This document shows, one piece after another, positions 21,519 to 34,244 of a stretch of 64,000 bases of DNA. This stretch comes from Pararhizobium sp. A13 (GTDB taxonomy: Bacteria; Pseudomonadota; Alphaproteobacteria; Rhizobiales; Rhizobiaceae). Position 1 is the first letter of the stretch; each line of letters opens with the position of its first letter. A program made the translations under genes and the position numbers. A model generated the notes under the pieces. That model did not search any database. It saw only the letters and a program-made list of their open reading frames with translations, and was not told the DNA's origin. The stretch lies in NCBI RefSeq assembly GCF_040126305.1, contig NZ_CP149511.1:620001-684000 (forward strand), written 5' to 3'.

Positions 21519-22589
21519 TCAGACTTTCCGACCCTCCTCGTTGAAGAAATGCAGGTTTTCCACGGGCAGCCGGACGGCGACCTCCCCGTGCATGCCGAGG
21601 AAGCGGCGGTCCAGCGTGAAGGCCTTGAAGGCGACGGGGCCGAGCTTCAGGTGGACGATGATGCCGAAGCCGGTGGGTTCGACGAGATCGACGGTCGCCT
21701 TCAGCACATCCGGGCCTTCGGCGCCGAGCACCACATGCTCAGGCCGGATGCCGAGCGTGGCGCGGTTGCCGTCGGCGAGATTGGCAGTGCCGCCGAGCGG
21801 CAGGACGACGCCGCCGGTGAGGGCGAACTTTGCCATGTCGCCCGCCTGCATGTAGCGACCTTCGAAGAAGTTCATGCCCGGCGAGCCGATGAAGCCGGCG
21901 ACGAACAGGTTGGCGGGATTGTCGTAGAGTTCGAGCGGGCTGCCGACCTGCTGGATAATGCCGCCATGCATGGCAACGATCCGGTCGGCGAGCGTCATCG
22001 CCTCGATCTGATCGTGGGTGACGTAGATCGAGGTCGCGCCGAGGTCCTGGTGCAGTTTCTTGATTTCGGCGCGCATCTGTTCGCGCAGGCGGGCGTCGAG
22101 GTTGGAGAGCGGCTCGTCGAACAGGAAGGCCTTTGGCTGACGCACGATGGCGCGGCCCATGGCGACGCGCTGGCGCTGGCCGCCGGAGAGCGCCTTGGGA
22201 CGGCGCTCCATCAAGGGATCGAGCCCGAGTTTGTTGGCCGCGCTCGCGACGACGGAGGCGATCTTGTCCTTGGCGGTCCTCCTCAAACGCAGGCTGTAGC
22301 TCATGTTCTTCGCCACACTCATATGCGGATAGAGCGCGTAGGACTGGAACACCATGGCGATGTCGCGGTCCTTCGGCGCGAGGTCGTTGACCCGCTTGCC
22401 GGCGATGCGGATCTCGCCGTCGGTAACGGCCTCAAGACCGGCGATCATGCGAAGCAGCGTGGACTTGCCGCAGCCCGAGGGGCCGACCAGCACGACGAAT
22501 TCGCCGTCCTTGATTTCCAGATCGACGCCGTGCAGCACCGGATGGATGCCGTAGGATTTCTGTACGTGGGCGATATCGATGGATGCCAT
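21519..22589 (-). CDS. ABC transporter ATP-binding protein, carbohydrate type (MalK/UgpC-like)
   Basis: 356 aa. Walker A GPSGCGKST, signature LSGGQRQRVAMGRA, Walker B FLFDEPLSNLDARLR and the H-loop THDQIEAMTLADR are intact, with a C-terminal TOBE region (about 240-356). It powers the importer formed by the two permeases and binding protein of the same operon and sits last in it, four bases after the MalG-like permease. The C-terminal domain could serve regulation, as in MalK. Confidence 0.94.
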   Translation of the reverse strand: MASIDIAHVQKSYGIHPVLHGVDLEIKDGEFVVLVGPSGCGKSTLLRMIAGLEAVTDGEIRIAGKRVNDLAPKDRDIAMVFQSYALYPHMSVAKNMSYSLRLRRTAKDKIASVVASAANKLGLDPLMERRPKALSGGQRQRVAMGRAIVRQPKAFLFDEPLSNLDARLREQMRAEIKKLHQDLGATSIYVTHDQIEAMTLADRIVAMHGGIIQQVGSPLELYDNPANLFVAGFIGSPGMNFFEGRYMQAGDMAKFALTGGVVLPLGGTANLADGNRATLGIRPEHVVLGAEGPDVLKATVDLVEPTGFGIIVHLKLGPVAFKAFTLDRRFLGMHGEVAVRLPVENLHFFNEEGRKV

Positions 22590-22593
22590 GGGA

Positions 22594-23427
22594 TCAGCCT
22601 TTCACGGCGCCGGCCGTCAGGCCCTGCACGAGGTAGCGTTGGATCAACAGGAAGAACAGGCAGGCGGGGATGAGCGCCAGCACGCCCGCCGCCATCATCT
22701 GTCCGAAGTCGACCGAGAATTTCGACACGAAGGACAGGAGCCCGACCGGAAAGGTCGCCGCGTCGTTGCCGGAGATCAGCATCAGCGAAAACAGAAGCTC
22801 GCTCCAGGCGGCGGTGAAGACGAAGCCGAGTGTCGCGGCGATGCCGGGCAGCGTCAGCGGCAGGATGATCTGGCGAAAGGCGACAAACTGGGTTGCGCCG
22901 TCGATCATGGCGGCTTCCTCCAGGTCCTTCGGGATGCCGTCGAAGAAGGACTGCATCAGGAAGGTGGCGAAGGGCACGTTGAAAGCAGTGTAGACGATGA
23001 CGAGGCCGGTCAAACTGTTGGTGAGGCCAAGCGGCGAGAGGATCTTGAAGATCGGCGCGACCAGCATGACCAGCGGGAACATCTGGGTGAGCAGCATCAG
23101 CGTCACGATCCAGTATTTGCCGCGGAAATTGAAGCGCGACATGGCATAGCCGGCGAGCGAGGCAAGCACCGTGACGATGATTGCGGTCGAGCCCGAGACG
23201 ATCAGGCTGTTCTTGAAGAAGACCGGGAAATCGCTGTGCTTCAGCACGAACTCGAAATGCTCGAAGCTCGTGCGCGACGGCCACATCTTGATGCCTTCGG
23301 AATAGAGCAGCTTGTTCGGTGTCACCGACACCTTCAAGAGCCAGTAGAGCGGGAAGAGCGCAAAGGCGATGTAGGCGAAGATGGCCAGACGATGCGCGAC
23401 GACGGAGAGGATGCGTTTGGCAGTCAT
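22594..23427 (-). CDS. ABC sugar-type permease (MalG family)
   Basis: 277 aa with six predicted membrane helices and the permease EAA loop (EEAAMIDGATQFVAFRQIILP, about residues 180-200), which contacts the ATPase. The C-terminal LVQGLTAGAVKG ending is typical of MalG-like permeases. It lies four bases after the other permease and four before the ATPase. The substrate cannot be read from the sequence. Confidence 0.93.
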   Translation of the reverse strand: MTAKRILSVVAHRLAIFAYIAFALFPLYWLLKVSVTPNKLLYSEGIKMWPSRTSFEHFEFVLKHSDFPVFFKNSLIVSGSTAIIVTVLASLAGYAMSRFNFRGKYWIVTLMLLTQMFPLVMLVAPIFKILSPLGLTNSLTGLVIVYTAFNVPFATFLMQSFFDGIPKDLEEAAMIDGATQFVAFRQIILPLTLPGIAATLGFVFTAAWSELLFSLMLISGNDAATFPVGLLSFVSKFSVDFGQMMAAGVLALIPACLFFLLIQRYLVQGLTAGAVKG

Positions 23428-23431
23428 GATC

Positions 23432-24370
23432 TCAATCCTTGCTCAGGAGCCATTGCCGCAGGACGACGATCAGCATCGAATAGGTGATCAGGAGCACGAG
23501 CAGCACCAGCGCGATGGCCGAGGCATAGCCGAAATCGAGCCGCTTGAAGGCTTGCGTGAAGATGTAGCTTGCGACGATCTGGCTGCGGTCGGCCGGTCCG
23601 CCATTGGTCATGACGATGATCAGGTCGGCGAAGTTGGAAATCCAGACGGTGCGCAGCAGAACGGTGATGGCGATGGTCGGGGCGAGGAAGGGCAGGGTGA
23701 TGGAGATGAAACGCTGGAGGGGGCCGGCGCCGTCGATGCTGGCGGCCTCGTAGAGATCGCGTGGGATCGCTTGCAGGGCGGCGAGCAGGGTGATCGCGAA
23801 AAAGGGGATGCCCCACCAGACGTTGGCGATGATCGGTCCCCACATGGAAAGCTGCGGATCGGAGAGGATATTGGCCGGCTCGCTCATCAGGCCGAGGGCA
23901 TAGAACCAGTGGGGTAGGGGGCCGACGACGGGATTGAACAGCCACGACCAGTTGAGGCCGGCGAGGAAGCTCGGAACGGCCCAGGGCAGGAAGACCAGCG
24001 CCTGCACGATGGCGCGACCATGGAAGGGCTTGTCCAGTAGCAAGGCGAGGATGAGGCCGAAGACAAACTGCAGGAGGACGGACCAGCCGGTCCACCACAG
24101 CGTGTTCCGCAGCGCGCGATAGAAATTCTGGTCCTGCGACAGGGTCTTGAAATGGTCGAGCCCGATAAAGCCGCCGGAGAAGGGGTTGAGCAGCTGGATG
24201 TCGCGGAAGGCATAGGAGATGCCGAGCACCAGCGGCACCAGCATGACGGTGACGATCAGGATCAGCGCCGGCGCGCTGTAGAGATAGGGCGCGGAAGCAT
24301 CGGCCAGACGCTTTTTCAGCGGCCGCTGGTCCCTGCGTGAACCGCTGCTGAGGGCTGCGAGTGAATCCAT
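23432..24370 (-). CDS. ABC sugar-type permease (MalF family)
   Basis: 312 aa from the ATG at 24370; thirteen further codons exist upstream but have no ribosome-binding site. It has six membrane helices, an N-terminal cytoplasmic stretch (about 1-30) and the EAA loop YEAASIDGAGPLQRFISIT near residues 205-225. It pairs with the MalG-like subunit encoded next. Confidence 0.92.
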   Translation of the reverse strand: MDSLAALSSGSRRDQRPLKKRLADASAPYLYSAPALILIVTVMLVPLVLGISYAFRDIQLLNPFSGGFIGLDHFKTLSQDQNFYRALRNTLWWTGWSVLLQFVFGLILALLLDKPFHGRAIVQALVFLPWAVPSFLAGLNWSWLFNPVVGPLPHWFYALGLMSEPANILSDPQLSMWGPIIANVWWGIPFFAITLLAALQAIPRDLYEAASIDGAGPLQRFISITLPFLAPTIAITVLLRTVWISNFADLIIVMTNGGPADRSQIVASYIFTQAFKRLDFGYASAIALVLLVLLITYSMLIVVLRQWLLSKD

Positions 24371-24482
24371 CGTCAAATATTTCCGTTTCGCGGCGTGTCT
24401 TTCGGGCAAGCCGTGTTTCCAGTCAGGAATGAAGCCGCAGGCAGCGAACGGGAGGCTGCTGCCTGCAGCTCAGGGCTTATGA

Positions 24483-25748
24483 CTATTTGCTCGCGAGGAA
24501 CTTCTGCTGAGCCTTGGTCATATATTCAGCCCATTGCTTGGCCATCTCTTCGGGCGTGATATCGCCGAGCATGGCTTCCTGGCTGGTCTTGATCGCCATC
24601 GAATCCTTGAAGAAGGCGAATTCTTCCAGATAGGTCGGCATCACGGTCGGAATGGCGTCCTTGTCGGCCAGTTCCTCGAACCAGCCCTTGAACTGCTCGC
24701 TGGCATAGAAGGGGTCCTTCTCGGCCGCTTTCAGCGCGGGAAGGGCACCGATGCGCTTGTTCCACTCGATATTGCCTTCCGGGCCCTCGAGCGTTGCGAT
24801 CAGCTTCCAAGCGAGGTCCTTGTTGGCGCTTGCCGACAGCATCGACCAGCCGGCATAGCCGATGGTCGGGAAGGTCTTGCCGGACGGGCCCTTCGGCATG
24901 GTGGTGACGCCGTAGTCTGCCGCCTCCATGCGTTCGCTGATGGCGATCAAGGCGTCCGGGTCCTGGTCGAGCATGGCGCAGGTTCCGGTGTAGAAGCCCG
25001 CGACGATCTCGTTAAAGCCCCAGTTGACGCTGTCCTTCGGCGCATAGCCGTTCTTGTAGAGATCGGTCAACCAAGTGAAACCCTTGACCCAGCCTTCTTC
25101 GCTGAACTTCGAGGTGCCGTCTTCGTTGAAGTAGGTATTGTCGCCAGCCATCGTCGCGCCGAACATCATCCAGCCGTTGAGGCCGCCCGGGCCGCCGCGC
25201 ATGCAATAGGCATATTTGCCCGGCAGCTTCTTGATCTTTTCGGCGGCGGCAACGAAGTCGTCCATCGTCTTCGGTGGGCCTTCGACGCCGGCCTCGGCGA
25301 AGATCTTCTTGTTGTAGAACATGGCGCGCAGATAGAAGCCGTAGGGCAGCATATAGGCCGTGTCCTTAACGTCGCGGCCAAGTTCGAGCGCCCGGTCCGT
25401 CAGGCCAGAGGTGTGCTCCCATTCCTTGAGATAGGGCTCGAGGCTTTCGAGCATGCCGTTGTTGGCATAGAGCGACAGCCAGGTGTCGGGCATTTCCATC
25501 ACGTCCGGAATTTCGCCGGCCGAGACCATGGTGGCGAACTTCTGGAAGGCTTCGCCCCAGGGGAGCGAGATGACCTCGACCGTGGTGCCAGGATTCGCCG
25601 CTTCGAACTTGGCGACGATCGATTTCAGCGTCTCGGTGCGCTCGGGGCTGGTGATGACTTCCACCAGCTTCAGCTTCGTATCGGCAAGGGCGGTGCCTGC
25701 CATCAGGGAGGCGAACAACGTCGCCGCAATCAGTTTCCTCATTTTCAT
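24483..25748 (-). CDS. Extracellular solute-binding protein of a carbohydrate-type ABC importer
   Basis: 421 aa from the ATG at 25748, where a clear Sec signal peptide begins (MKMRKLIAATLFASL, cleavage near TALA-DT). Mature protein is family 1 solute-binding (KFEAANPGTTVEVISLPW, then MEMPDTWLSLYANNG). It is periplasmic. The gene follows the PLP-enzyme gene by only 37 bases, so the ligand may be the PLP enzyme's substrate or its precursor rather than a plain sugar; that is inference from position. Confidence 0.92.
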   Translation of the reverse strand: MKMRKLIAATLFASLMAGTALADTKLKLVEVITSPERTETLKSIVAKFEAANPGTTVEVISLPWGEAFQKFATMVSAGEIPDVMEMPDTWLSLYANNGMLESLEPYLKEWEHTSGLTDRALELGRDVKDTAYMLPYGFYLRAMFYNKKIFAEAGVEGPPKTMDDFVAAAEKIKKLPGKYAYCMRGGPGGLNGWMMFGATMAGDNTYFNEDGTSKFSEEGWVKGFTWLTDLYKNGYAPKDSVNWGFNEIVAGFYTGTCAMLDQDPDALIAISERMEAADYGVTTMPKGPSGKTFPTIGYAGWSMLSASANKDLAWKLIATLEGPEGNIEWNKRIGALPALKAAEKDPFYASEQFKGWFEELADKDAIPTVMPTYLEEFAFFKDSMAIKTSQEAMLGDITPEEMAKQWAEYMTKAQQKFLASK

Positions 25749-25785
25749 ATCCCCTTTTTTGTTTGGGTGGTTGCTTGCAGTCGTG

Positions 25786-26958
25786 TCAGCCTGATGAGGC
25801 GGCAGTGATCGCCGCCTCGAGATCGCTCCAGAGGGCCTCCGTTCCCTCCAGGCCGACATGGAGCCGTACCGACCGCGGACTGATGCCGAAGGCGACCGCG
25901 GAATTGGGTTGTGCTTTTTGCGCCAGAACGACGTCGCCCGGCACGATCAGGCTTTCGTGCCCGCCCCAGCTGACGCCCAGCTTGAACAGCTTGAGGTGAT
26001 CGGAAAACGTGCGGACATCGATACCGTCGCGGAAAATGAACGAGAAAAGGCCGGATGTGCCGGTGAGACCGGGCGCCAGCTGGTTGGCAAGGCCGGGATA
26101 GCAGACGGTCTCGACCGCCTCGTGGGCCTGCAGGCGCCTGGCAATGGAGAGGGCGGACTGTTCATGCGCCTTCATGCGGATCGGCAGTGTGCGCATGCCG
26201 CGGATCAAAAGCCAGGCATCGAAGGGAGAGAGCTTGCCGCCGAGATAGGGATAAGCTTCCCCGCGGATGCGGCCGATCAGTTCCTTCGAGCCGGCGACGA
26301 CGCCGGCAACGACATCGCTGTGGCCGCCGAGATATTTCGAGGCCGAATGGATGACCAGATCGACGCCGAGCGAGATCGGCTGCTGGAAGATCGGGCTTGC
26401 CCAGCTGTTGTCGATCGTGGTGATGACGCCGTGGCGTTTGGCAAGCGCTGCGAGTGCGGAGACGTCATGGGTTTCCATCACCCAGCTCGTTGGGCTCTCC
26501 AGATAGAGGAGTTTGGCGCCGGGCAGGGCCTTGGCGACCTCTTCCTCGTCGCGACCGTCGACATAGGTCACCTCGATGCGCATGCGCTTAAACAGGGTGC
26601 CGAACAGGCGAAAGGCATCCGGATAGAGGTGCCTGACGGCGACGATGCGGTCGCCAGGTTCGACGAAGGAAAGAACCGTGGAGGAAATGGCGGACATGCC
26701 GCTGGCAAAGCCGATCGCGTCCTGCGCACCTTCGAGCTTGGCCAGCATTTCCTCGAACATCCGCACGGTCGGATTGAGACCGCGTGTATAGATAGGACGG
26801 ACCTTTTCACCGCGATAGGAGGCGACCATGTCGTCATAATCGGTGAAGGTGAAGAGCGAGGTCTGCACGATCGGCGGTACGACCGCGTCATAGGCATTGC
26901 TCTCGTCATGGGCGACGATGAGGGAGGCATCTTCGAACGGATCGAACCCGTTGCTCAT
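25786..26958 (-). CDS. Cys/Met-metabolism PLP enzyme (cystathionine gamma-synthase / beta-lyase family)
   Basis: 390 aa, usual family length. PLP lysine in IHSASKYLGGHSDVVAG, phosphate-binding and aromatic stacking residues in FASGMSAISSTVLSF and in KVRPIYTRGLNPTVRMFE. The family performs beta- or gamma-elimination or replacement on sulfur amino acids. The start overlaps the stop of the gntR gene (ATGA), and an ABC importer follows, an unusual pairing for this enzyme. The reaction direction cannot be decided from sequence. Confidence 0.88.
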   Translation of the reverse strand: MSNGFDPFEDASLIVAHDESNAYDAVVPPIVQTSLFTFTDYDDMVASYRGEKVRPIYTRGLNPTVRMFEEMLAKLEGAQDAIGFASGMSAISSTVLSFVEPGDRIVAVRHLYPDAFRLFGTLFKRMRIEVTYVDGRDEEEVAKALPGAKLLYLESPTSWVMETHDVSALAALAKRHGVITTIDNSWASPIFQQPISLGVDLVIHSASKYLGGHSDVVAGVVAGSKELIGRIRGEAYPYLGGKLSPFDAWLLIRGMRTLPIRMKAHEQSALSIARRLQAHEAVETVCYPGLANQLAPGLTGTSGLFSFIFRDGIDVRTFSDHLKLFKLGVSWGGHESLIVPGDVVLAQKAQPNSAVAFGISPRSVRLHVGLEGTEALWSDLEAAITAASSG

Positions 26959-27674
26959 TTGGACATTTCCTTGATGTCTTCCTCTACGATGGCGAGGATT
27001 TTCAGTGTTTCGGCGCGCGCGCCCTCAGGGTCCTGCGCGGCAATGGCGTTGAAGAGTGTGCGGTGGAACGGGAATGACCGGCGGGCGAAATCCGGCCGAT
27101 CGAAAGGCTTTTCCCAAAAGCGTTCGAAGGCTTCGCGCATCTGTTCGAGGAGCTGCTTGAACAGCGGATTGTGGGTGGCGTCGTAGATGGCGAGGTGGAA
27201 GGCAAGGTCTTCCGGGCCGGATGTGCCCTTGGAAAGATGCACCCGCTCCATCTCGTTCAGCTTTTCCTCGATCATCGTCACGTCTTCGACTGTGCGCATG
27301 CGGGCGGCGACCATCCCGGCCTCGGCCTCGATGCCGCGGCGGACTTCCAGGGTCTTCAACAACACGTCGCGCAGATGCGTCGTCTCCAGCGAAAGCGGCA
27401 TGTGGATGGTGGCGCCGGAGATCGGTTTCAGGAGATAGGTGCCACTGCCCTTGCGCGCCTCGACCACGCCGAGAGCCTGAAAATGGCGGATGACTTCGCG
27501 GATGGTCGAACGGCCGACGGCAAGCGCCGCCATCAGCTCGCGCTCGGCCGGGAGCCGGTCGCCGGGGACGAGATTGGAGCGCTGAATATAGTCGGCGAGA
27601 GCGGCCGTCACCTGCCGGGCCCGATCGACCGGGGGCAGGGGGGCAAGCGCCGCTCTGGCATCCTTGTGCTTCAT
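26955..27674 (-). CDS. GntR-family (FadR/FCD type) regulator, first gene of the PLP-ABC operon
   Basis: 239 aa from the ATG at 27674, just past the longer frame start. The winged helix is seen in LPAERELMAALAVGRSTIRE (about 42-61), followed by an FCD ligand domain whose metal-binding histidines may be in EDLAFHLAIYDATHN and FPFHRTLF. It is first in the operon and overlaps the next gene by four bases, so it probably autoregulates the whole unit in response to the imported compound. Confidence 0.88.
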   Translation of the reverse strand: MKHKDARAALAPLPPVDRARQVTAALADYIQRSNLVPGDRLPAERELMAALAVGRSTIREVIRHFQALGVVEARKGSGTYLLKPISGATIHMPLSLETTHLRDVLLKTLEVRRGIEAEAGMVAARMRTVEDVTMIEEKLNEMERVHLSKGTSGPEDLAFHLAIYDATHNPLFKQLLEQMREAFERFWEKPFDRPDFARRSFPFHRTLFNAIAAQDPEGARAETLKILAIVEEDIKEMSK

Positions 27675-28671: not shown

Positions 28672-29673
28672 TCAGATTGTCTCGGGCGTCACGCTTGCGA
28701 GCCCCCGCGGATAGGTCCGCTCGGAAAGCGGCACCGCCTCGATCGCAGCGAGCAGGCGATCGACCAGCAGCGTCTCGGCCCGATTGCCGCGTGCGAAACG
28801 TCGGGTGACGATATAGACGTCGGCGGCGGGCGGATTCTGATAAGGCGGCAATTGCCAGAGCTGGCGCGCTTCGATGTCGACCGCGACCACGTGAATCGGC
28901 AGCGGGCCGAAGCCAAAACCGACCTTGATCAGCCGTTTGACTTCTTCGAGATTGGTGAAGAGGCCGAGCACCGGGCCGTTGAAATTCTCCCGCTGCCTCA
29001 GCCGGGCGACCGGTGCCAGCGCGCCGTTTAGGTGATCTGTCTTGAACGAGACGTAGTCCAGACCGGCAAGTTCGGTGATATCGACGCCGCGCTTGCCGAA
29101 CAGCGGATGGCCGGGCGCGCAGAAGAAGCCGAAATGCTCGCGGTAAAGCACCGCATAATCGAGCTCCGGGTGTTTTTCCTGCGCCAGGCAGATGCCGAGG
29201 CCCGCTTCGCTGGTAAGAACTGCGTCGATCACGGCCTGGCTGGCCAAGACCGTTGTCGAAAAGGTGACGCGCGGGAAGGCCTTGTGGAAATCCGCCAGGA
29301 AACGATCGAGAAACGGACACTCGATATGGCTGGCGAAGGCCATCTCGACATGGCCGCTGACCAGATCGGGATCGTCCTCGATTAGGTCGGGAAGGCCGGT
29401 GACGATACGGAACATGGTCCGGCATTCAGCGTAGAGTCGCTCGCCCGCTGGTGTCATACGGAAATGATTGGAGGAGCGATCGATCAGGCGGCAGGCCATG
29501 TGATCTTCGAGACGGCGAAGCGCGTTGCTAATGGTCGGCTGTTTCAACAGCAGCCTATTGCCTGCCGCCGTCAGGCTCTTCTCCTCGACGATCACCGTGA
29601 AGGTACGCAGCAGGTTCCAGTCGATCTCCCAGACGAAGCGGCGTCTCGGCCGGAGCATGGCTACCTCATTCAT
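28672..29673 (-). CDS. LysR-family regulator divergent from the aminotransferase operon
   Basis: About 333 aa from the ATG at 29673 (or 328 aa from 29658); the frame runs on to 29814 but that part does not look like LysR. The helix-turn-helix lies in LLRTFTVIVEEKSLTAAGNRL and LLKQPTISNALRRLEDHM, the effector domain after that. Its 302-base gap to the divergent aminotransferase gene suggests it controls that four-gene operon. Confidence 0.85.
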   Translation of the reverse strand: MNEVAMLRPRRRFVWEIDWNLLRTFTVIVEEKSLTAAGNRLLLKQPTISNALRRLEDHMACRLIDRSSNHFRMTPAGERLYAECRTMFRIVTGLPDLIEDDPDLVSGHVEMAFASHIECPFLDRFLADFHKAFPRVTFSTTVLASQAVIDAVLTSEAGLGICLAQEKHPELDYAVLYREHFGFFCAPGHPLFGKRGVDITELAGLDYVSFKTDHLNGALAPVARLRQRENFNGPVLGLFTNLEEVKRLIKVGFGFGPLPIHVVAVDIEARQLWQLPPYQNPPAADVYIVTRRFARGNRAETLLVDRLLAAIEAVPLSERTYPRGLASVTPETI

Positions 29674-29975
29674 TTCGTGAATGTTACACCTTCGCCTAAT
29701 GTATTTGTCCACTGAAGTCCATTGTGGTTTGATCGTCTCGATCGGCAGACCCAACGCGGCGTTGACGTGACGGACAGAGGCCAGCCGTTTCGTAACTTCG
29801 GAAAGGTTCGCCACAGCAACGGCATGCTCGTCAATTTCAACCGCGGCATGGGCGAGGTTTTCAGCGCCGGAACCCGCGAATGGATGGCAAGGCTGCTGCG
29901 CTCCGATCCGTCGAGCGCCTCATTGCCAACGCCCTCAACCATAACTCAAGCGACGGAACCAGAGCGAAGCAATCC
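29674..29975. promoter_or_regulatory. Divergent control region of the LysR gene and aminotransferase operon
   Basis: 302 bases. No gene can be supported, although frames are open on both strands across 29720-29940 with coding-like composition, so this may be the scar of an older gene. Promoters for both directions must be here. I could not place a T-N11-A LysR box with confidence. Confidence 0.35.
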
Positions 29976-31340
29976 ATGAACATCCAAGCCAGCGAACGGT
30001 CCGCATCCCATCTTTTCTACATGACGCGGCTGCGTCGGCCGCTGGTCGAGCGGGCCGAGGGCATCTATTTCTGGACGAAGGACGGCCGCCGGTTCATCGA
30101 TGGATCGAGCGGGCCGATGGTCAGCAATATCGGCCATGGCAACCGTCACGTCATCGAGGCGATGAAGCGGCAGATGGAAAAGACAACCTTCGCCTATCGC
30201 CTGCATTTCGAGAACGAGCCGGCGGAAGAACTGGCCCGGCGGCTGGCGGCAAAGATGCCGGGTGACCTCGACCGCATCTTCTTTGTTTCCGGCGGCTCGG
30301 AGGCGGTGGAATCGGCGATCAAGCTGGCGCGGCAATGGGCGGTCGCGACCGGCCAACCTAGCCGCTGGAAGGTGATCTGCCGCTTTCCCTCCTATCACGG
30401 AGGCACGATGGGCGCGCTCGGCGTGACGGGCGACCTGGCGCTGACGGAAACATTCGCACCGCAGATCCAGCCAATGCCGGCGATTACCGCGCCAACCGCC
30501 TATCGCGATCGTGACAATCTCACGATGGAACAGCGGGGCTTACGCTATGCCGACATGCTCGAGGAGAAAATCCTTGGCGAAGGCCCCGAAAGCGTCGTCG
30601 CCTTCATCATGGAGCCGATCGGTGGAGCGGCGACGGCGGCCCTTGTGCCGCCAGACAGCTATTTCCTGCGCATCCGCGAGATCTGCGACAAGTACGGCAT
30701 CCTGCTCATCCATGACGAGGTAATGAGCGGGGCTGCCCGCACCGGGCGTTATCTCGGCGGCGATCACTGGAACTGCAAGCCGGATATCATCACGCTGTCG
30801 AAAGGCATCGGCTCTGGCTATGCCGCGCTTGGCGCGATGGCAGCCTCCGCCAAACTGGTGAAGCCGGTGCTCGACATGGGTGGCTTCCAACATGGCCATA
30901 CTTATGCCGGCAACCCGCTCGCCTGTGCGGCCGGGCTTGCGGTGCTCGAGGAAATGGAAAAGCTCGGCTGCGAGGCAAACGCGACCGCGATGGGCGATCT
31001 CCTGAAGTCCGAGCTTGAAGGGCTTTCGAAGCGCTTTCCCTTTGTCGCCGGGGTGCGCGGCAAAGGACTGCTGATCGGCGCCGATTTGGTTGCCGATCCC
31101 CTGACATTCAAGCCCCTGCCTAAAGCAAAGGCAGCGAACCAGCGCCTGCTCGACATCGCCTATGACAAGGGCCTCATCCTCTATTCCCGGCGCATTCGCG
31201 GCGACGGCGCCGAACTCGACAACATCATCCTTGCGCCGCCACTGATCATTACGGCGAAACAGATCGGCGATATGGTGTCGATCCTCAGCGACAGCTTCGA
31301 GATTTTGGCGCGCGATCTCGAACTCCCGGTTAACGGCTGA
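29976..31340 (+). CDS. Class III (omega) aminotransferase
   Basis: 454 aa from the ATG at 29976; a longer frame to 29880 has no site. Fold-type I class III features are IFFVSGGSEAVESAIKLAR, the PLP aspartate in LLIHDEVMSGAARTG and the PLP lysine in IITLSKGIGSGYAALGA. Such enzymes deaminate terminal amines or beta-amino acids with pyruvate or 2-oxoglutarate as acceptor. It is first in an operon with a beta-keto acid cleavage enzyme nine bases downstream, which suggests that its product is a beta-keto acid, hence a beta-amino acid substrate (inference). Confidence 0.9.
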   Translation: MNIQASERSASHLFYMTRLRRPLVERAEGIYFWTKDGRRFIDGSSGPMVSNIGHGNRHVIEAMKRQMEKTTFAYRLHFENEPAEELARRLAAKMPGDLDRIFFVSGGSEAVESAIKLARQWAVATGQPSRWKVICRFPSYHGGTMGALGVTGDLALTETFAPQIQPMPAITAPTAYRDRDNLTMEQRGLRYADMLEEKILGEGPESVVAFIMEPIGGAATAALVPPDSYFLRIREICDKYGILLIHDEVMSGAARTGRYLGGDHWNCKPDIITLSKGIGSGYAALGAMAASAKLVKPVLDMGGFQHGHTYAGNPLACAAGLAVLEEMEKLGCEANATAMGDLLKSELEGLSKRFPFVAGVRGKGLLIGADLVADPLTFKPLPKAKAANQRLLDIAYDKGLILYSRRIRGDGAELDNIILAPPLIITAKQIGDMVSILSDSFEILARDLELPVNG

Positions 31341-31349
31341 GGACGCGGC

Positions 31350-32282
31350 ATGGCAACGAAGAAAGTCATCATCACCTGCGCTGTGACCGGGTCGGTGCAC
31401 ACGCCATCGATGAGCCGATATCTGCCGGTGACGCCGGATGAGATCGCCGAACAGGCGATTGCCGCGGCGGAAGCGGGCGCCTCGATCCTGCATCTGCATG
31501 CGCGCAATCCCTCCGACGGACGGCCGACCGCAGATCCCACGGTTTTCATGCAATTCCTGCCGCTCATCAAGCAGACGACGGACGCCGTCATCAATATTTC
31601 GACCGGCGGTAGTTCGCTGATGTTGCTCGACGACCGGTTGGCGGCGGCGCTGAAGGCAGAGCCGGAAATGTGTTCGCTCAACATGGGATCGATGAATTTC
31701 GGCATCTTTCCGCTCGCCAAGCCCGGAATGGAATGGCAGCACGACTGGGAGCCGCACCTCCTGGAGGCGACGCGCGGCACAATCTTCAAGAACACCTTTG
31801 CCGATATCGAGGACATCCTCAAACGGCTGGGCGAGGGGTGTGGCACGCGATTCGAGTTCGAATGCTACGATGTCGGCCACCTCTATTCGCTGAAGCATTT
31901 TTACGATCGCGGACTGGTCAGGGGACCGCTGTTCATCCAGTTCGTCCTCGGCATTCTCGGCGGCATCGGCGCTGATCCGGACAATATCAGCCACATGAAG
32001 CGGATCGCCGACAAGCTGTTCGGCGACGACTACCGCTTCTCGGTGTTGGCCGCCGGGCGCCAGCAGATGCCGCTGATTACCATGGGCGCGGCGATGGGCG
32101 GCAATGTCCGGGTCGGGCTGGAAGACAACCTCTATCTGGGGCGCGGCGAACTTGCGAAATCCAATGCCGAGCAGGTGAGCCGCATCCGGACGATCCTCGA
32201 AGCCCTCTCGCTGGAGATCGCCACACCGGACGATGCACGGGCGATGCTTTCGCTCAAGGGCGGCGATCGGGTGGCGTTCTGA
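31350..32282 (+). CDS. Beta-keto acid cleavage enzyme (BKACE, DUF849 family)
   Basis: 310 aa, full length. Zinc-binding HLHARNPSDGRPTADP (two His of the HxH pair), the N-terminal KVIITCAVTGSVHTPSMS block and the FEFECYDVGHLYSL motif are those of the Kce/BKACE family. By family knowledge it condenses a beta-keto acid with acetyl-CoA and splits the product into acetoacetate and a new CoA ester; 3-keto-5-aminohexanoate (lysine fermentation) is the founding substrate, and others include beta-ketoadipate, dehydrocarnitine and 5-hydroxy-3-oxohexanoate. The stop shares a base with the next start (TGATG). Confidence 0.92.
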   Translation: MATKKVIITCAVTGSVHTPSMSRYLPVTPDEIAEQAIAAAEAGASILHLHARNPSDGRPTADPTVFMQFLPLIKQTTDAVINISTGGSSLMLLDDRLAAALKAEPEMCSLNMGSMNFGIFPLAKPGMEWQHDWEPHLLEATRGTIFKNTFADIEDILKRLGEGCGTRFEFECYDVGHLYSLKHFYDRGLVRGPLFIQFVLGILGGIGADPDNISHMKRIADKLFGDDYRFSVLAAGRQQMPLITMGAAMGGNVRVGLEDNLYLGRGELAKSNAEQVSRIRTILEALSLEIATPDDARAMLSLKGGDRVAF

Positions 32283-32794
32283 TGGTGGAGCTTTCAACCC
32301 CGTTACCGAACGTCCGCCTGGCCGTGGCCGAGGACGCGAAGCTGATCCATACCGGTTTGCTGACAATCGCCAAGCATCTTGGTTCGGAAGAAAGGGTAAC
32401 GTCGACGCCGGACGATATCCGCAGGCACGGATTTGGTGCGCAACCGGCCTTCACCGGACTGATTGCGGAAATCGACGGAGCCTTCGCGGGCATGTGCCTC
32501 TTCTTCCAGAGTTTTTCTACATGGCGCGGGCAGAAGGGTGCCTATATTCAGGATATCGTCGTCGAGGAGCAATTTCGCGGTGCAGGCATCGGGGTAGCGC
32601 TTCTACGCCATACGGCAGCGCATGTCCGCGCGAGCGGCGGCGCCTATCTGCGGCTGTCCGTCGACGCAAGAAACGTTTCGGCGCGGCATTTCTACGAGCG
32701 GATGGGGCTTGCCTGGTCAGAAGAAGAGCGCATTCATGCCGTCTATGGCGATGCCTTCGAAACGCTTGCCGGGCTGCATGAGAGCGGGGTTTGA
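32282..32794 (+). CDS. GNAT-family N-acetyltransferase
   Basis: 170 aa. Acetyl-CoA motif A is QDIVVEEQFRGAGIGVALL (R-G-A-G-I-G), motif B is LSVDARNVSARHFYERMGL, both typical of diamine/polyamine-type GNAT enzymes (spermidine acetyltransferase likeness is inferred from SVDARNxxAxxFYxxxG). Its start overlaps the BKACE stop by one base. An acetyltransferase next to a deacetylase suggests transient N-acetylation of an amine in the pathway. Confidence 0.88.
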   Translation: MVELSTPLPNVRLAVAEDAKLIHTGLLTIAKHLGSEERVTSTPDDIRRHGFGAQPAFTGLIAEIDGAFAGMCLFFQSFSTWRGQKGAYIQDIVVEEQFRGAGIGVALLRHTAAHVRASGGAYLRLSVDARNVSARHFYERMGLAWSEEERIHAVYGDAFETLAGLHESGV

Positions 32795-32803
32795 GAGAAA
32801 AAC

Positions 32804-33823
32804 ATGAAGACCTTCTATGCGAACGAACAGAAGCAGCATGATCCGAAGATGTTCCTGTCCAGCGGCGCAGCGCAGCCCAATCCGGAAAAGCCGGAGCGCG
32901 TCGAGCGACTGCTTGCCGGCGCTAGGGCGGCCGGCTGCGAGATCGTCCGGCCCCGTGATCACGGCGTAAAGCCGATCGCCGCCATCCATACGCCCGAATA
33001 TATCGAGTTCCTGCAAAACATCTTCCTGCGCTGGCAGCGGATCGAGGGCGCTTCGGAAGAGGTGATCCCGAACATCCATCCGCTGGCCCGCACCGACCGC
33101 TATCCCGCCTCCGCTGTCGGTCAGGCCGGCTATCATATGGCCGATACCGCCTGCCCGATTTCCGCCGATACCTGGGGCAGCGCTTGCTGGAGCGCTTGGA
33201 GTGCGGTCGAGGCGGCGGAAGTCGTGCTTGCCGGCGAGCGCTCGGCCTATGCGCTTTGCCGCCCACCGGGCCACCACGCCTTTGCCGATGTCGCCGGCGG
33301 CTTCTGTTTCCTCAACAATTCCGCGATCGCCGCACAGCACCTGTTAAGGTCGTCAAAACGCGTCGCCATTCTCGATGTCGACCTGCATCACGGCAACGGC
33401 ACGCAGGGAATCTTTTACGCCCGCAACGACGTGCTGACGGTCTCACTGCATGCCGATCCCGTCCGCTTCTATCCCTTTTACTGGGGCAATGCCGACGAAC
33501 GCGGCGAGGGCCCCGGTCTCGGTTATAATTTCAACCTGCCGCTGCCGCGTAAGACGTCCGATGTGGGATTTTTGGACGCGCTTGATGTCGCCAACCGCCG
33601 CATCGAAGCCTATGGACCGGACGCGTTGGTCGTGGCACTCGGCCTCGATGCCTTCGAAGGCGACCCTTTCGGCGGGCTGTCCGTTTCGACGCCAGGCTTT
33701 GCACGGATCGCCGAGGCGATCAGCGGGCTCGGCTTGCCGACGGTTATCGTTCAGGAAGGCGGTTATCTCTGCGACGCGTTGAGCGCCAATCTCACGTCGT
33801 TCCTGACGGGATTTGTCCATTGA
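32804..33823 (+). CDS. HDAC-like amidohydrolase (acetylpolyamine amidohydrolase type)
   Basis: 339 aa. Class II deacetylase signature: RPPGHHAFADVAGGFCFLNN (His-His dyad), zinc ligands in ILDVDLHHGNGTQGIFY, and LGLDAFEGDPFGG for the third zinc aspartate. The insertion HADPVRFYPFYWGNADERG is the hallmark of acetylpolyamine amidohydrolases and narrows the active site. It would remove an N-acetyl group from a small amine. It is last in the operon, nine bases after the GNAT gene, and the accessory region starts right after its stop. Confidence 0.9.
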   Translation: MKTFYANEQKQHDPKMFLSSGAAQPNPEKPERVERLLAGARAAGCEIVRPRDHGVKPIAAIHTPEYIEFLQNIFLRWQRIEGASEEVIPNIHPLARTDRYPASAVGQAGYHMADTACPISADTWGSACWSAWSAVEAAEVVLAGERSAYALCRPPGHHAFADVAGGFCFLNNSAIAAQHLLRSSKRVAILDVDLHHGNGTQGIFYARNDVLTVSLHADPVRFYPFYWGNADERGEGPGLGYNFNLPLPRKTSDVGFLDALDVANRRIEAYGPDALVVALGLDAFEGDPFGGLSVSTPGFARIAEAISGLGLPTVIVQEGGYLCDALSANLTSFLTGFVH

Positions 33824-33825
33824 CA

Positions 33826-33925
33826 CCGTGGCCTCACGCCGTTGATTTATGGCCACGTCAACCCTTATGGCCGCTTCGATCTCGATTCGAACAACCGCAT
33901 CGCTTTCGAAAGGGCCGCCACGTAA
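33826..33925 (+). pseudogene. C-terminal tail of a Tn3-family transposase (likely)
   Basis: Directly after the deacetylase stop the frame reads [20 protein letters not shown], then ends in AFERAAT and TAA (33923-33925). The LSPLxxxHxNxYGRF pattern is the end of Tn3-type transposases. About 30 codons remain with no upstream part, so the junction at 33825 looks like a transposon-mediated deletion or insertion edge. Short similarity only; a database search is needed to be firm. Confidence 0.45.
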
Positions 33926-34136
33926 GACGGGAGGGTGCGAAAGGTTGTTGCAATAATCTGTCGTCCAAGCCTAACTTTAATTGGGGGGCATGCATTGCTG
34001 GCGCTTTGCGACTTGGCAGAAGGAGCTGAAGACAGCCCCAATACGGCGGTACGAAATTCCGCAAAGCCGTCAGGCATTGCCAGACCACAGCGAAACCTGC
34101 ATATTTCCATCATTCTTGGCCCAAGAGGAGATTGAA

Positions 34137-34244
34137 ATGAAAACGATCATGTCCAGCCTCAAAACCATTCGTGTACAACAGGACATGACCGTTGATGCAT
34201 TCCAATCATCTCAACAGGGAGAAGCGCGCGCAAAAACGCCGTAG
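34137..34244 (+). CDS. Possible 35-aa leader peptide overlapping the ABC exporter start
   Basis: MKTIMSSLKTIRVQQDMTVD... begins at 34137 with a strong ribosome-binding site (AAGAGGAG seven bases upstream) and stops at 34244, overlapping the exporter gene start by about 50 bases in another frame. The exporter's own start codons have no comparable site, so translation of the exporter may depend on coupling to this peptide. Alternatively the frames were once joined and an indel separated them. Confidence 0.45.
   Translation: MKTIMSSLKTIRVQQDMTVDAFQSSQQGEARAKTP

What the first reader, a model, noticed from the sequence alone, without database searches (positions are those of the whole stretch)
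29976..33823. Candidate undescribed catabolic operon: aminotransferase, beta-keto acid cleavage enzyme, GNAT and acetylpolyamine-type deacetylase
Four tightly packed genes (gaps 9, -1 and 9 bases) divergent from a LysR regulator encode a class III aminotransferase, a BKACE (DUF849) enzyme, a GNAT acetyltransferase with polyamine-type features and an HDAC-like enzyme with the acetylpolyamine insertion. A logical route is uptake of an N-acetylated amine, deacetylation, transamination to a beta-keto acid and cleavage with acetyl-CoA. N-acetyl-beta-lysine or another beta-amino acid or diamine would fit the BKACE founding reaction. The presence of both an acetylase and a deacetylase suggests acetylation used as a transient protecting group. 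No transporter is in the unit.
Basis: partly seen in the sequence, partly recalled or inferred. Interest (0 to 1): 0.78.

Follow-up and report, generated by a model that had tools for sequence, protein, structure and literature searches.

The report
Likely beta-lysine breakdown operon in rhizobia
Four neighbouring genes in a soil bacterium look like the missing gene set for a route, known to me only as enzyme activities, that breaks down the amino acid beta-lysine by first masking one end of it with an acetyl group and removing that mask at the end.

Summary
A class III aminotransferase (AT), a BKACE, a GNAT and an HDAC-fold gene lie at 29976-33823, gaps 9, -1 and 9 bases, divergent from LysR. 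The set is conserved: 32 of 70 relatives with enough flank carry all four in this order.

Two corrections. The HDAC-like enzyme is not a typical acetylpolyamine hydrolase: all 93 sequences compared keep the catalytic residues, but almost none keeps the three polyamine-binding glutamates. A DMF-hydrolase-like fifth gene (35 of 80 relatives' loci) survives here only as a 70-codon remnant.

Best reading: acetylate, transaminate, cleave with acetyl-CoA, deacetylate, as in the L-beta-lysine pathway of Barker's Pseudomonas (recalled). Some relatives swap BKACE for CoA-transferase plus thiolase, or HDAC for an M20 deacylase; two rhizobial plasmids put a CoA-transferase version near a lysine-2,3-aminomutase-like gene. 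A related aminomutase-like gene in Sinorhizobium meliloti lies behind a NifA/sigma-54-type element.

The logic is well supported (about 0.8), beta-lysine itself moderately (0.55). Against it: 12 of 34 AT loci have no cleavage module beside them, and the host's only KamA-family gene is EpmB-type.

The parts
28672..29658 (-). LysR-family regulator, divergent from the operon
   Evidence: Pfam HTH_1 and LysR_substrate; 79-88% identical orthologue next to the same operon in L004-L007; start placed at 29658 because the conserved palindrome lies just upstream (inference)
29668..29682 (.). Palindrome ATTCA-N5-TGAAT (T-N11-A type), candidate LysR box
   Evidence: both arms identical in 6 of 6 aligned upstream regions (window, L004-L007, L120)
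29767..29979 (+). Remnant of a DMF-hydrolase-like gene (PF20254 type in relatives), 70 codons left after an in-frame deletion; its stop overlaps the AT start
   Evidence: DNA match to L004 stops at window ~29774 (L004 6968) and resumes at ~29794 (L004 8431); net loss 1443 bases against each of L004-L007; C-terminal piece 65-69% identical to L004-L007; translation as it stands
29976..31340 (+). Class III aminotransferase; proposed N6-acetyl-beta-lysine aminotransferase
   Evidence: best of 13 match rows in its genome to PRK06917 (416.7 against 299.5 bits); 58-60% identical to the AT of the CoA-transferase-type operons L144, L169 and L170, at most 33% to the 7 other host class III loci compared
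31350..32282 (+). BKACE (beta-keto acid cleavage enzyme); proposed 3-keto-6-acetamidohexanoate cleavage
   Evidence: NCBIfam NF053538 530.7 bits, cut-off 430; catalytic residues kept against BKACE15
32282..32794 (+). GNAT; proposed beta-lysine N6-acetyltransferase
   Evidence: second-best solved relative named thialysine acetyltransferase (58.9 bits), further ones diamine and ornithine acetyltransferases
32804..33823 (+). HDAC-fold amidohydrolase; proposed 4-acetamidobutyryl-CoA / 4-acetamidobutyrate deacetylase
   Evidence: catalytic residues kept in 93 of 93 sequences, acidic polyamine-binding residues absent here

Best explanation
The operon breaks down a beta-amino acid that carries a second, terminal amino group, most likely L-beta-lysine (3,6-diaminohexanoate) or N6-acetyl-beta-lysine. 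Step 1 (inferred): the GNAT acetylates the N6 amino group, which stops cyclisation after the next step. Step 2 (inferred): the AT moves the 3-amino group to an oxo acid, giving 3-keto-6-acetamidohexanoate. Step 3 (chemistry known for the family, substrate inferred): BKACE with acetyl-CoA gives acetoacetate and 4-acetamidobutyryl-CoA. Step 4 (inferred): the HDAC-like enzyme removes the acetyl group and a thioesterase (a 4HBT gene beside LysR in some relatives, not next to the window operon) frees CoA, yielding GABA for the host's GABA/SSADH route. This is the reaction sequence Barker's group described in a Pseudomonas (recalled), for which I know of no assigned genes. The DMF-hydrolase-like gene deleted here was probably an accessory amidase, for an amide form of the substrate or for the 2-pyrrolidinone by-product (guess).
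For: All four enzyme types of the recalled pathway in one conserved operon. Module swaps keep the chemistry: L144, L169 and L170 have AT-CoA-transferase A/B-M20 deacylase-thiolase, L144 and L170 with a homologous LysR (39-42%) and SBP_bac_3-type importer; in L042 an M20 deacylase takes the HDAC position after AT-BKACE-GNAT. Beta-lysine anchor: a lysine-2,3-aminomutase-like gene lies directly upstream of CoA-transferase A/B-M20-thiolase-GNAT in L152 and about 7 kb from the same set plus AT in L154; in L127 AT-(truncated BKACE)-GNAT-HDAC lies 9 and 18 kb from two KamA-family genes. B. subtilis kamA (BSU19690) and yodT (BSU19740) are five tags apart, and YodT, like our AT, is closest to PDB 3I4J. 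GNAT resembles omega-amino acetyltransferases. The BKACE group takes uncharged C5-C6 beta-keto acids: listed BKACE15 substrates include beta-ketohexanoate and 3,5-dioxohexanoate. The HDAC rim is non-acidic. Some relatives have an SBP_bac_3 importer resembling lysine/arginine/cystine systems, below every cut-off, and a 4HBT thioesterase. The host has three SSADH matches over cut-off.
Against: No enzyme here was assayed. Of 34 AT loci in the family, 12 have neither BKACE nor CoA-transferase beside the AT; 6 of these 12 genomes have a 63-69% BKACE elsewhere and 2 have a 38-39% thiolase homologue about 3.5 kb upstream, but the rest show no close BKACE. Thalassospira and Ferruginivarius loci lack a recognisable GNAT. 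The host's only KamA-family match is of EpmB type beside genes I read as efp and epmA, and no KamA homologue was found in the 80 BKACE loci. Of four plasmids with the CoA-transferase/M20/thiolase/GNAT set, the fetched stretch shows a KamA-like gene in two (L152, L154) and none in L145 and L153; their AT is a different, hemL-like enzyme, and the KamA-like proteins belong to TIGR03822, a hypothetical equivalog, below the AblA cut-off. The GNAT is not AblB by NCBIfam, and the BKACE carries another NCBIfam name. The DMF-hydrolase-like gene of 35 of 80 loci has no place in the recalled pathway.
Confidence: 0.55

Rival explanations
1. Same logic, other substrate: a different beta-amino acid with a terminal amino group (beta-ornithine, 3,5-diaminohexanoate or a modified beta-lysine) is acetylated, transaminated, cleaved and deacetylated.
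For: Nothing in the sequence fixes the chain length; BKACE15 accepts several C5-C6 beta-keto acids; BKACE was named for 3-keto-5-aminohexanoate.
Against: KamA linkage in related clusters points to lysine-derived beta-amino acids; the recalled pathway fits beta-lysine step by step.
Confidence: 0.22
2. Breakdown of N-acetylated diamines or polyamines: the HDAC-like enzyme deacetylates an imported acetylpolyamine first, and the AT acts on the freed amine.
For: Closest solved relatives are named acetylpolyamine aminohydrolase/amidohydrolase; the Thalassospira locus L046 carries a PotA-like ABC ATPase.
Against: M. ramosa APAH residues E17, E106 and E117 are kept in 0, 1 and 0 of 93 sequences. A polyamine aldehyde gives BKACE no substrate. 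11 of 80 loci carry an amino-acid-type binding protein instead.
Confidence: 0.08
3. The BKACE acts on 3,5-dioxohexanoate or beta-ketohexanoate (its NCBIfam name), and the neighbours are unrelated passengers.
For: NF053538 equivalog hit 530.7 bits, cut-off 430.
Against: The same substrates are listed for BKACE15, whose physiological role is stated to be unknown. At least two of AT, GNAT and HDAC travel with this BKACE in 39 of 42 loci at 75% identity or more, against 8 of 38 at 60-75%.
Confidence: 0.08
4. Detoxification or use of beta-lysine-bearing antibiotics (streptothricin, viomycin): GNAT as resistance enzyme, the rest recycling the side chain.
For: Weak GNAT similarity to streptothricin acetyltransferases (STAT 43.8 bits, cut-off 420); 35 of 80 loci carry an amidase-like gene.
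Against: The GNAT is far below every resistance cut-off listed; an operon with AT and BKACE, in relatives also an importer, looks catabolic.
Confidence: 0.05

Closest known systems
L-beta-lysine pathway of Barker's Pseudomonas (beta-lysine acetyltransferase; N6-acetyl-beta-lysine transaminase EC 2.6.1.65; 3-keto-6-acetamidohexanoate cleavage; 4-acetamidobutyryl-CoA deacetylase EC 3.5.1.51) - recalled, papers not read
   Same: all four enzyme types, in one operon
   Different: known only as activities in a Pseudomonas, as far as I recall; gene assignment here is by inference, in Alphaproteobacteria
Bacillus subtilis kamA-yodPQRST operon (YodP GNAT, YodQ M20 deacylase, YodRS CoA transferase, YodT AT; gene content recalled, kamA and yodT entries seen in passages of PMC6522883)
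   Same: related AT, a GNAT, a deacylase and a beta-keto-acid module
   Different: CoA transferase instead of BKACE, M20 instead of HDAC, kamA included; SigE-controlled; function unproven
BKACE family / Candidatus Cloacamonas KCE and Paracoccus BKACE15
   Same: same family, catalytic E171 and R254 conserved
   Different: associated with AT, GNAT and HDAC; natural substrate of this clade unassigned
Acetylpolyamine amidohydrolase (M. ramosa APAH)
   Same: family and catalytic residues
   Different: three acidic polyamine-binding residues replaced, in the window by F, V and A

Membership tests
BKACE (PF05853) | profile score over cut-off and active-site residues | tested here: met
   362 bits, cut-off 24.8; E171 and R254; H48/H50, E258, D259 (role recalled)
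NF053538 3,5-dioxohexanoate:acetyl-CoA acetone transferase | score over curated cut-off | tested here: met
   530.7 against 430 bits
NF053538 3,5-dioxohexanoate:acetyl-CoA acetone transferase | 3,5-dioxohexanoate as physiological substrate | not testable with these tools
   needs kinetics; neighbours argue for an amine-derived beta-keto acid
Acetylpolyamine amidohydrolase | metal ligands and catalytic His/Tyr | tested here: met
   93 of 93 sequences, window included
Acetylpolyamine amidohydrolase | acidic polyamine-binding residues (E17, E106, E117 of M. ramosa APAH; E117's role seen in a passage of PMC5454378, E17 and E106 recalled) | tested here: not met
   window F, V, A; E kept in 0, 1 and 0 of 93. 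On the alignments 6phr has acidic residues at all three positions, but 9gkz, also named APAH, only at the first
Barker-type beta-lysine pathway | acetyltransferase, class III AT, keto-acid cleavage enzyme and deacetylase encoded together | tested here: met
   conserved order in 32 of 70 loci
Barker-type beta-lysine pathway | thioesterase for the acyl-CoA product | tested here: inconclusive
   no 4HBT gene in the window's neighbours scanned; a 4HBT gene lies beside LysR in 11 of 80 loci and behind HDAC in 2 more; the rest of the host genome was not searched for it
Barker-type beta-lysine pathway | enzymes act on beta-lysine intermediates | not testable with these tools
   assays needed
kamA-yod type cluster | linked lysine 2,3-aminomutase | tested here: not met
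   host has one KamA-family match, EpmB type, on another contig; linkage seen in relatives L127, L152 and L154
PRK06917 (NF005375) aminotransferase | score over curated cut-off | tested here: not met
   417 against 535 bits; PRK07483 scores slightly higher (421) and also below its cut-off (485)

The most novel reading that the evidence does not exclude
The operon is the catabolic half of a producer/consumer pair, analogous to rhizopines. In nodules, bacteroids carrying a NifA/sigma-54-controlled KamA-like plus ATP-grasp cluster make a beta-lysine-derived amide. Rhizobia carrying the LysR-controlled GNAT/AT/(BKACE or CoA-transferase-thiolase)/deacylase set, with the DMF-hydrolase-like amidase as entry enzyme, consume it. 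The window strain, having lost that amidase, would be limited to the free beta-amino acid.
Probability: 0.17. Interest if true: 0.88.

Novelty: new variant of a known kind. Interest (0 to 1): 0.62.

Why it matters
If right, it supplies sequences for two enzyme activities that I recall as lacking them (N6-acetyl-beta-lysine transaminase and 4-acetamidobutyryl-CoA deacetylase). It corrects the 'acetylpolyamine' label on an HDAC-fold subgroup, gives a BKACE clade a natural substrate, and offers a reading of the unexplained kamA-yod operon of Bacillus subtilis. It also points to an unassigned lysine-aminomutase-like cluster in rhizobia whose product could be looked for directly in nodules.

Tried and rejected
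Searched the BKACE loci for a linked KamA with the host's EpmB-type protein (E 1e-5) and with the L152 KamA-like protein (E 1e-10): none. Searched 398 Pseudomonadota genomes with the AblA model: none over the cut-off, and none of the 30 loci fetched carried LysR, AT, BKACE, GNAT, HDAC or the DMF-hydrolase-like gene at E 1e-3 within flanks of at most 1.5 kb. Considered that the DMF-hydrolase-like gene and the thioesterase replace each other: rejected, because L014-L017 and L032 (Ensifer, Mesorhizobium) have both. Considered the ectoine pathway because the importer of L016 is EhuC/EhuA-like: both are below the cut-offs and BKACE has no role there that I know of. A PDB sequence search with the DMF-hydrolase-like protein of L016 found nothing at E 0.001. 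A sigma-70 and terminator scan of 29600-34200 gave no more than shuffles do. Viral and metagenome collections were not scanned and the search for homologous proteins was not used.


Full report
OBSERVATION. The window (contig 2 of a 6.36-Mb, three-contig genome, 620001-684000) holds four co-directional genes at 29976-33823 exactly as described: class III aminotransferase (AT), BKACE, GNAT and HDAC-fold protein, with spacings 9, -1 and 9 bases. A LysR gene diverges from them. Pfam scores are above cut-off for all. The AT start at 29976 is preferred over the longer ORF from 29880, because the stop codon of an upstream remnant ORF overlaps the ATG at 29976.

CONSERVATION. Ten of the 80 have too little flank. 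Of the other 70, 32 carry AT-BKACE-GNAT-HDAC in this order; 8 carry AT-BKACE-HDAC, 2 AT-BKACE-GNAT, 1 BKACE-GNAT-HDAC, 2 BKACE-HDAC and 25 none. The association follows the BKACE clade: at least two of the three partners in 39 of 42 loci at 75% identity or more, against 8 of 38 at 60-75% (all 80 counted). Separately, in 199 genomes of the host's family, AT (E 1e-180) is in 34, BKACE (1e-130) in 60, HDAC (1e-130) in 48 and GNAT (1e-25) in 45. By the printed coordinates, 29 of the 48 HDAC genes lie less than 1 kb from such a BKACE (counted by hand). Of the 34 AT loci, 19 have BKACE next to AT (16 of these with the full set, the window included), 2 have CoA-transferase, M20 and thiolase instead, 12 have neither beside them, and 1 is cut by a contig end (matches under 36% identity were not shown). 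The two samples of genomes overlap in part and are not independent.

THE MISSING FIFTH GENE. In 35 of the 80 loci a protein of about 546 aa with a DMFA2_C domain (PF20254, N,N-dimethylformamidase beta-like; domain tested on L016 and L008) lies upstream, in 33 directly before AT and in 2 (L008, L009) before BKACE where AT is missing. The window's DNA aligns with Rhizobium Root1334 (L004) up to about 29774 and resumes at about 29794; against each of L004-L007 the net loss is 1443 bases, a multiple of three. What is left is a 70-codon ORF at 29767-29979. The regulatory region is kept: a palindrome ATTCA-N5-TGAAT at 29668-29682 is conserved in 6 of 6 aligned regions. The host has three other PF20254 matches, at most 27.4% identical to that of L016. 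So the window strain carries a trimmed form of a larger operon, with the four enzymes and the promoter region intact.

MODULES. A 4HBT thioesterase lies beside LysR in 11 of 80 loci and behind HDAC in 2 more (Pfam for two of them). Two replacements are informative. In Zavarzinia (L042) the order is AT-BKACE-GNAT-M20 deacylase. In L144 (Rhodobacteraceae plasmid), L169 and L170 the AT (58-60% identical to the window's) is followed by CoA-transferase A and B, M20 deacylase and thiolase. CoA-transferase plus thiolase does to a beta-keto acid what BKACE does: it releases an acyl-CoA shortened by two carbons. The exchange therefore argues that the AT makes a beta-keto acid and that an N-acyl group must be removed. 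The 7 other class III loci of the host that were compared are at most 33% identical to this AT.

WHICH SUBSTRATE. From memory, H.A. Barker's group (1979-81) described beta-lysine breakdown in a Pseudomonas as N6-acetylation, transamination to 3-keto-6-acetamidohexanoate, cleavage with acetyl-CoA, and a deacetylase-thiolesterase for 4-acetamidobutyryl-CoA leading to GABA. I did not read those papers. The operon has exactly these enzyme types. Supporting details: the GNAT's solved relatives include thialysine, diamine and ornithine acetyltransferases. BKACE15, of the same group, takes uncharged C5-C6 beta-keto acids (passages and section 9 of PMC11961710). E117's role was seen in a passage of PMC5454378; E17 and E106 are recalled. 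On the alignments, 6phr is acidic at all three positions but 9gkz, also called APAH, only at one, so this is good but not absolute evidence. The B. subtilis kamA and yodT entries (BSU19690, BSU19740) and YodT's closeness to 3I4J, also our AT's best PDB match, come from passages of PMC6522883; the rest of that operon's content, and that YodT belongs to PRK06917, are recalled (exactly one of 14 control genomes passes that cut-off; one search does not say which). A passage of PMC2821294 states that ablA clusters with ablB, the beta-lysine acetyltransferase; passages of PMC1224877 describe N-epsilon-acetyl-beta-lysine as an osmolyte of methanogens, a possible natural source.

THE LYSINE-AMINOMUTASE LINK. 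Four plasmids of legume-associated rhizobia carry a related set, CoA-transferase A/B-M20-thiolase-GNAT, the GNAT 40-42% identical to the window's (L145, L152, L153, L154). In three of them LysR diverges from the set and a class III AT follows; in L152 LysR and AT lie 5-9 kb further on. A TIGR03822 lysine-2,3-aminomutase-like gene is directly upstream in L152 and about 7 kb from the AT in L154; none is seen in the fetched stretches of L145 and L153. ATP-grasp genes lie near in L152, L153 and L154. In S. meliloti ml46 pSymA (L146) a GNAT of the same kind sits with KamA-like, ATP-grasp, Asd-like and kinase genes, without the CoA-transferase set in the stretch. There, two exact TGT-N10-ACA elements are each followed 104 bases later by a sigma-54 element; among nine loci and 8 kb of window scanned with these strict patterns, the only other such pair was in L127, and none was found in L152 or L154. 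L127 (Rhizobium sp. CB3171) has AT-(truncated BKACE)-GNAT-HDAC 9 and 18 kb from two KamA-family genes, one of them just under the TIGR00238 cut-off. A proteome of R. leguminosarum pea bacteroids lists a lysine 2,3-aminomutase and a D-Ala-D-Ala-ligase-like protein among the most abundant proteins, both not detected in vegetative cells (PMC7950203, passages and sections 19 and 21). Those authors do not discuss the aminomutase in what I read, and I did not show that their gene is the one in these plasmids. A follow-up on the neighbouring diaminobutyrate aminotransferase does not use the words lysine or aminomutase (PMC10228743, passages), and the Mesorhizobium loti NifA-regulon paper has no aminomutase in its text (PMC3538637, listing and passages). 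This is the basis of the producer/consumer idea in the section on the most novel reading; it is a hypothesis.

AGAINST. No activity is shown. Twelve of 34 AT loci have no cleavage module beside them; 6 of those genomes have a 63-69% BKACE elsewhere and two (L157, L158) a distant thiolase homologue about 3.5 kb upstream. The linkage to KamA is through related clusters whose AT is hemL-like (L145, L146, L152-L154), or through a single plasmid with a damaged BKACE (L127). The host has no KamA-family match other than the EpmB-type gene beside what I read as efp and epmA, so any beta-lysine must come from outside or from EF-P turnover. The six Thalassospira loci lack the GNAT and carry a FAD oxidase and an M20 deacylase, with a PotA-like ATPase in L046, so the wider family may serve several substrates. 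The DMF-hydrolase-like gene is unexplained; that it opens 2-pyrrolidinone formed from 4-aminobutyryl-CoA, or an entry amide, is a guess.

NOVELTY. Gene assignments for this pathway were not found in the listings of searches of an open-access library that lacks most subscription journals, so prior assignment elsewhere cannot be excluded. Passages only were also seen of PMC6365646 (BKACE in deoxyribonate use), PMC11532494, PMC8556138 and PMC4784309 (bacterial deacetylases); none assigns this operon in what I saw. I rate it a new variant of a known kind: known chemistry, a new BKACE/HDAC-based gene set, and a testable correction of current labels.

Noticed in passing
L146 2156-8675; L152 4607-13316; L154 14025-19761; L127 5360-18812: KamA-like genes (TIGR03822 in L146, L152, L154) with ATP-grasp and, in L146, Asd-like and kinase genes on rhizobial plasmids; NifA-type UAS plus sigma-54 elements in L146 and L127 but not found in L152 or L154. 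An unassigned, possibly nodule-expressed biosynthetic cluster.
   Followed up: partly
window 29767-29979: A clean in-frame deletion of 1443 bases (against L004-L007) in a DMF-hydrolase-like gene, leaving start, promoter region and end.
   Followed up: yes
L131 5460-10858 and L037 6953-9621: Other copies look damaged or partial: DMF-hydrolase-like, BKACE, GNAT and HDAC matches incomplete (L131); DMF-hydrolase-like in two pieces and AT shortened (L037).
   Followed up: no
L044, L046, L048, L049, L053, L054: Thalassospira variant: AT, BKACE, HDAC-like, FAD oxidase (DAO) and M20 deacylase, without GNAT, with a PotA-like ABC ATPase in L046: probably a related substrate.
   Followed up: partly
L125 1021-13643: Azospirillum plasmid cluster pairing HDAC-like, BKACE (65%), an acetolactate-synthase-like gene, an ArgE/DapE deacylase and an ABC transporter.
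   Followed up: no
L062 10965-13071: Two HDAC-fold genes in tandem directly downstream of BKACE in Ferruginivarius.
   Followed up: no
PDB 3men: Solved structure named acetylpolyamine aminohydrolase that is closest to the window's HDAC-like protein and has Tyr, not Glu, at the position of M. ramosa APAH E17; possibly mislabelled.
   Followed up: partly
window 21519-27674: Sugar-type ABC transporter (SBP_bac_1), Cys/Met-type PLP enzyme and GntR regulator upstream of LysR; a similar arrangement lies beside the operon in L120.
   Followed up: no
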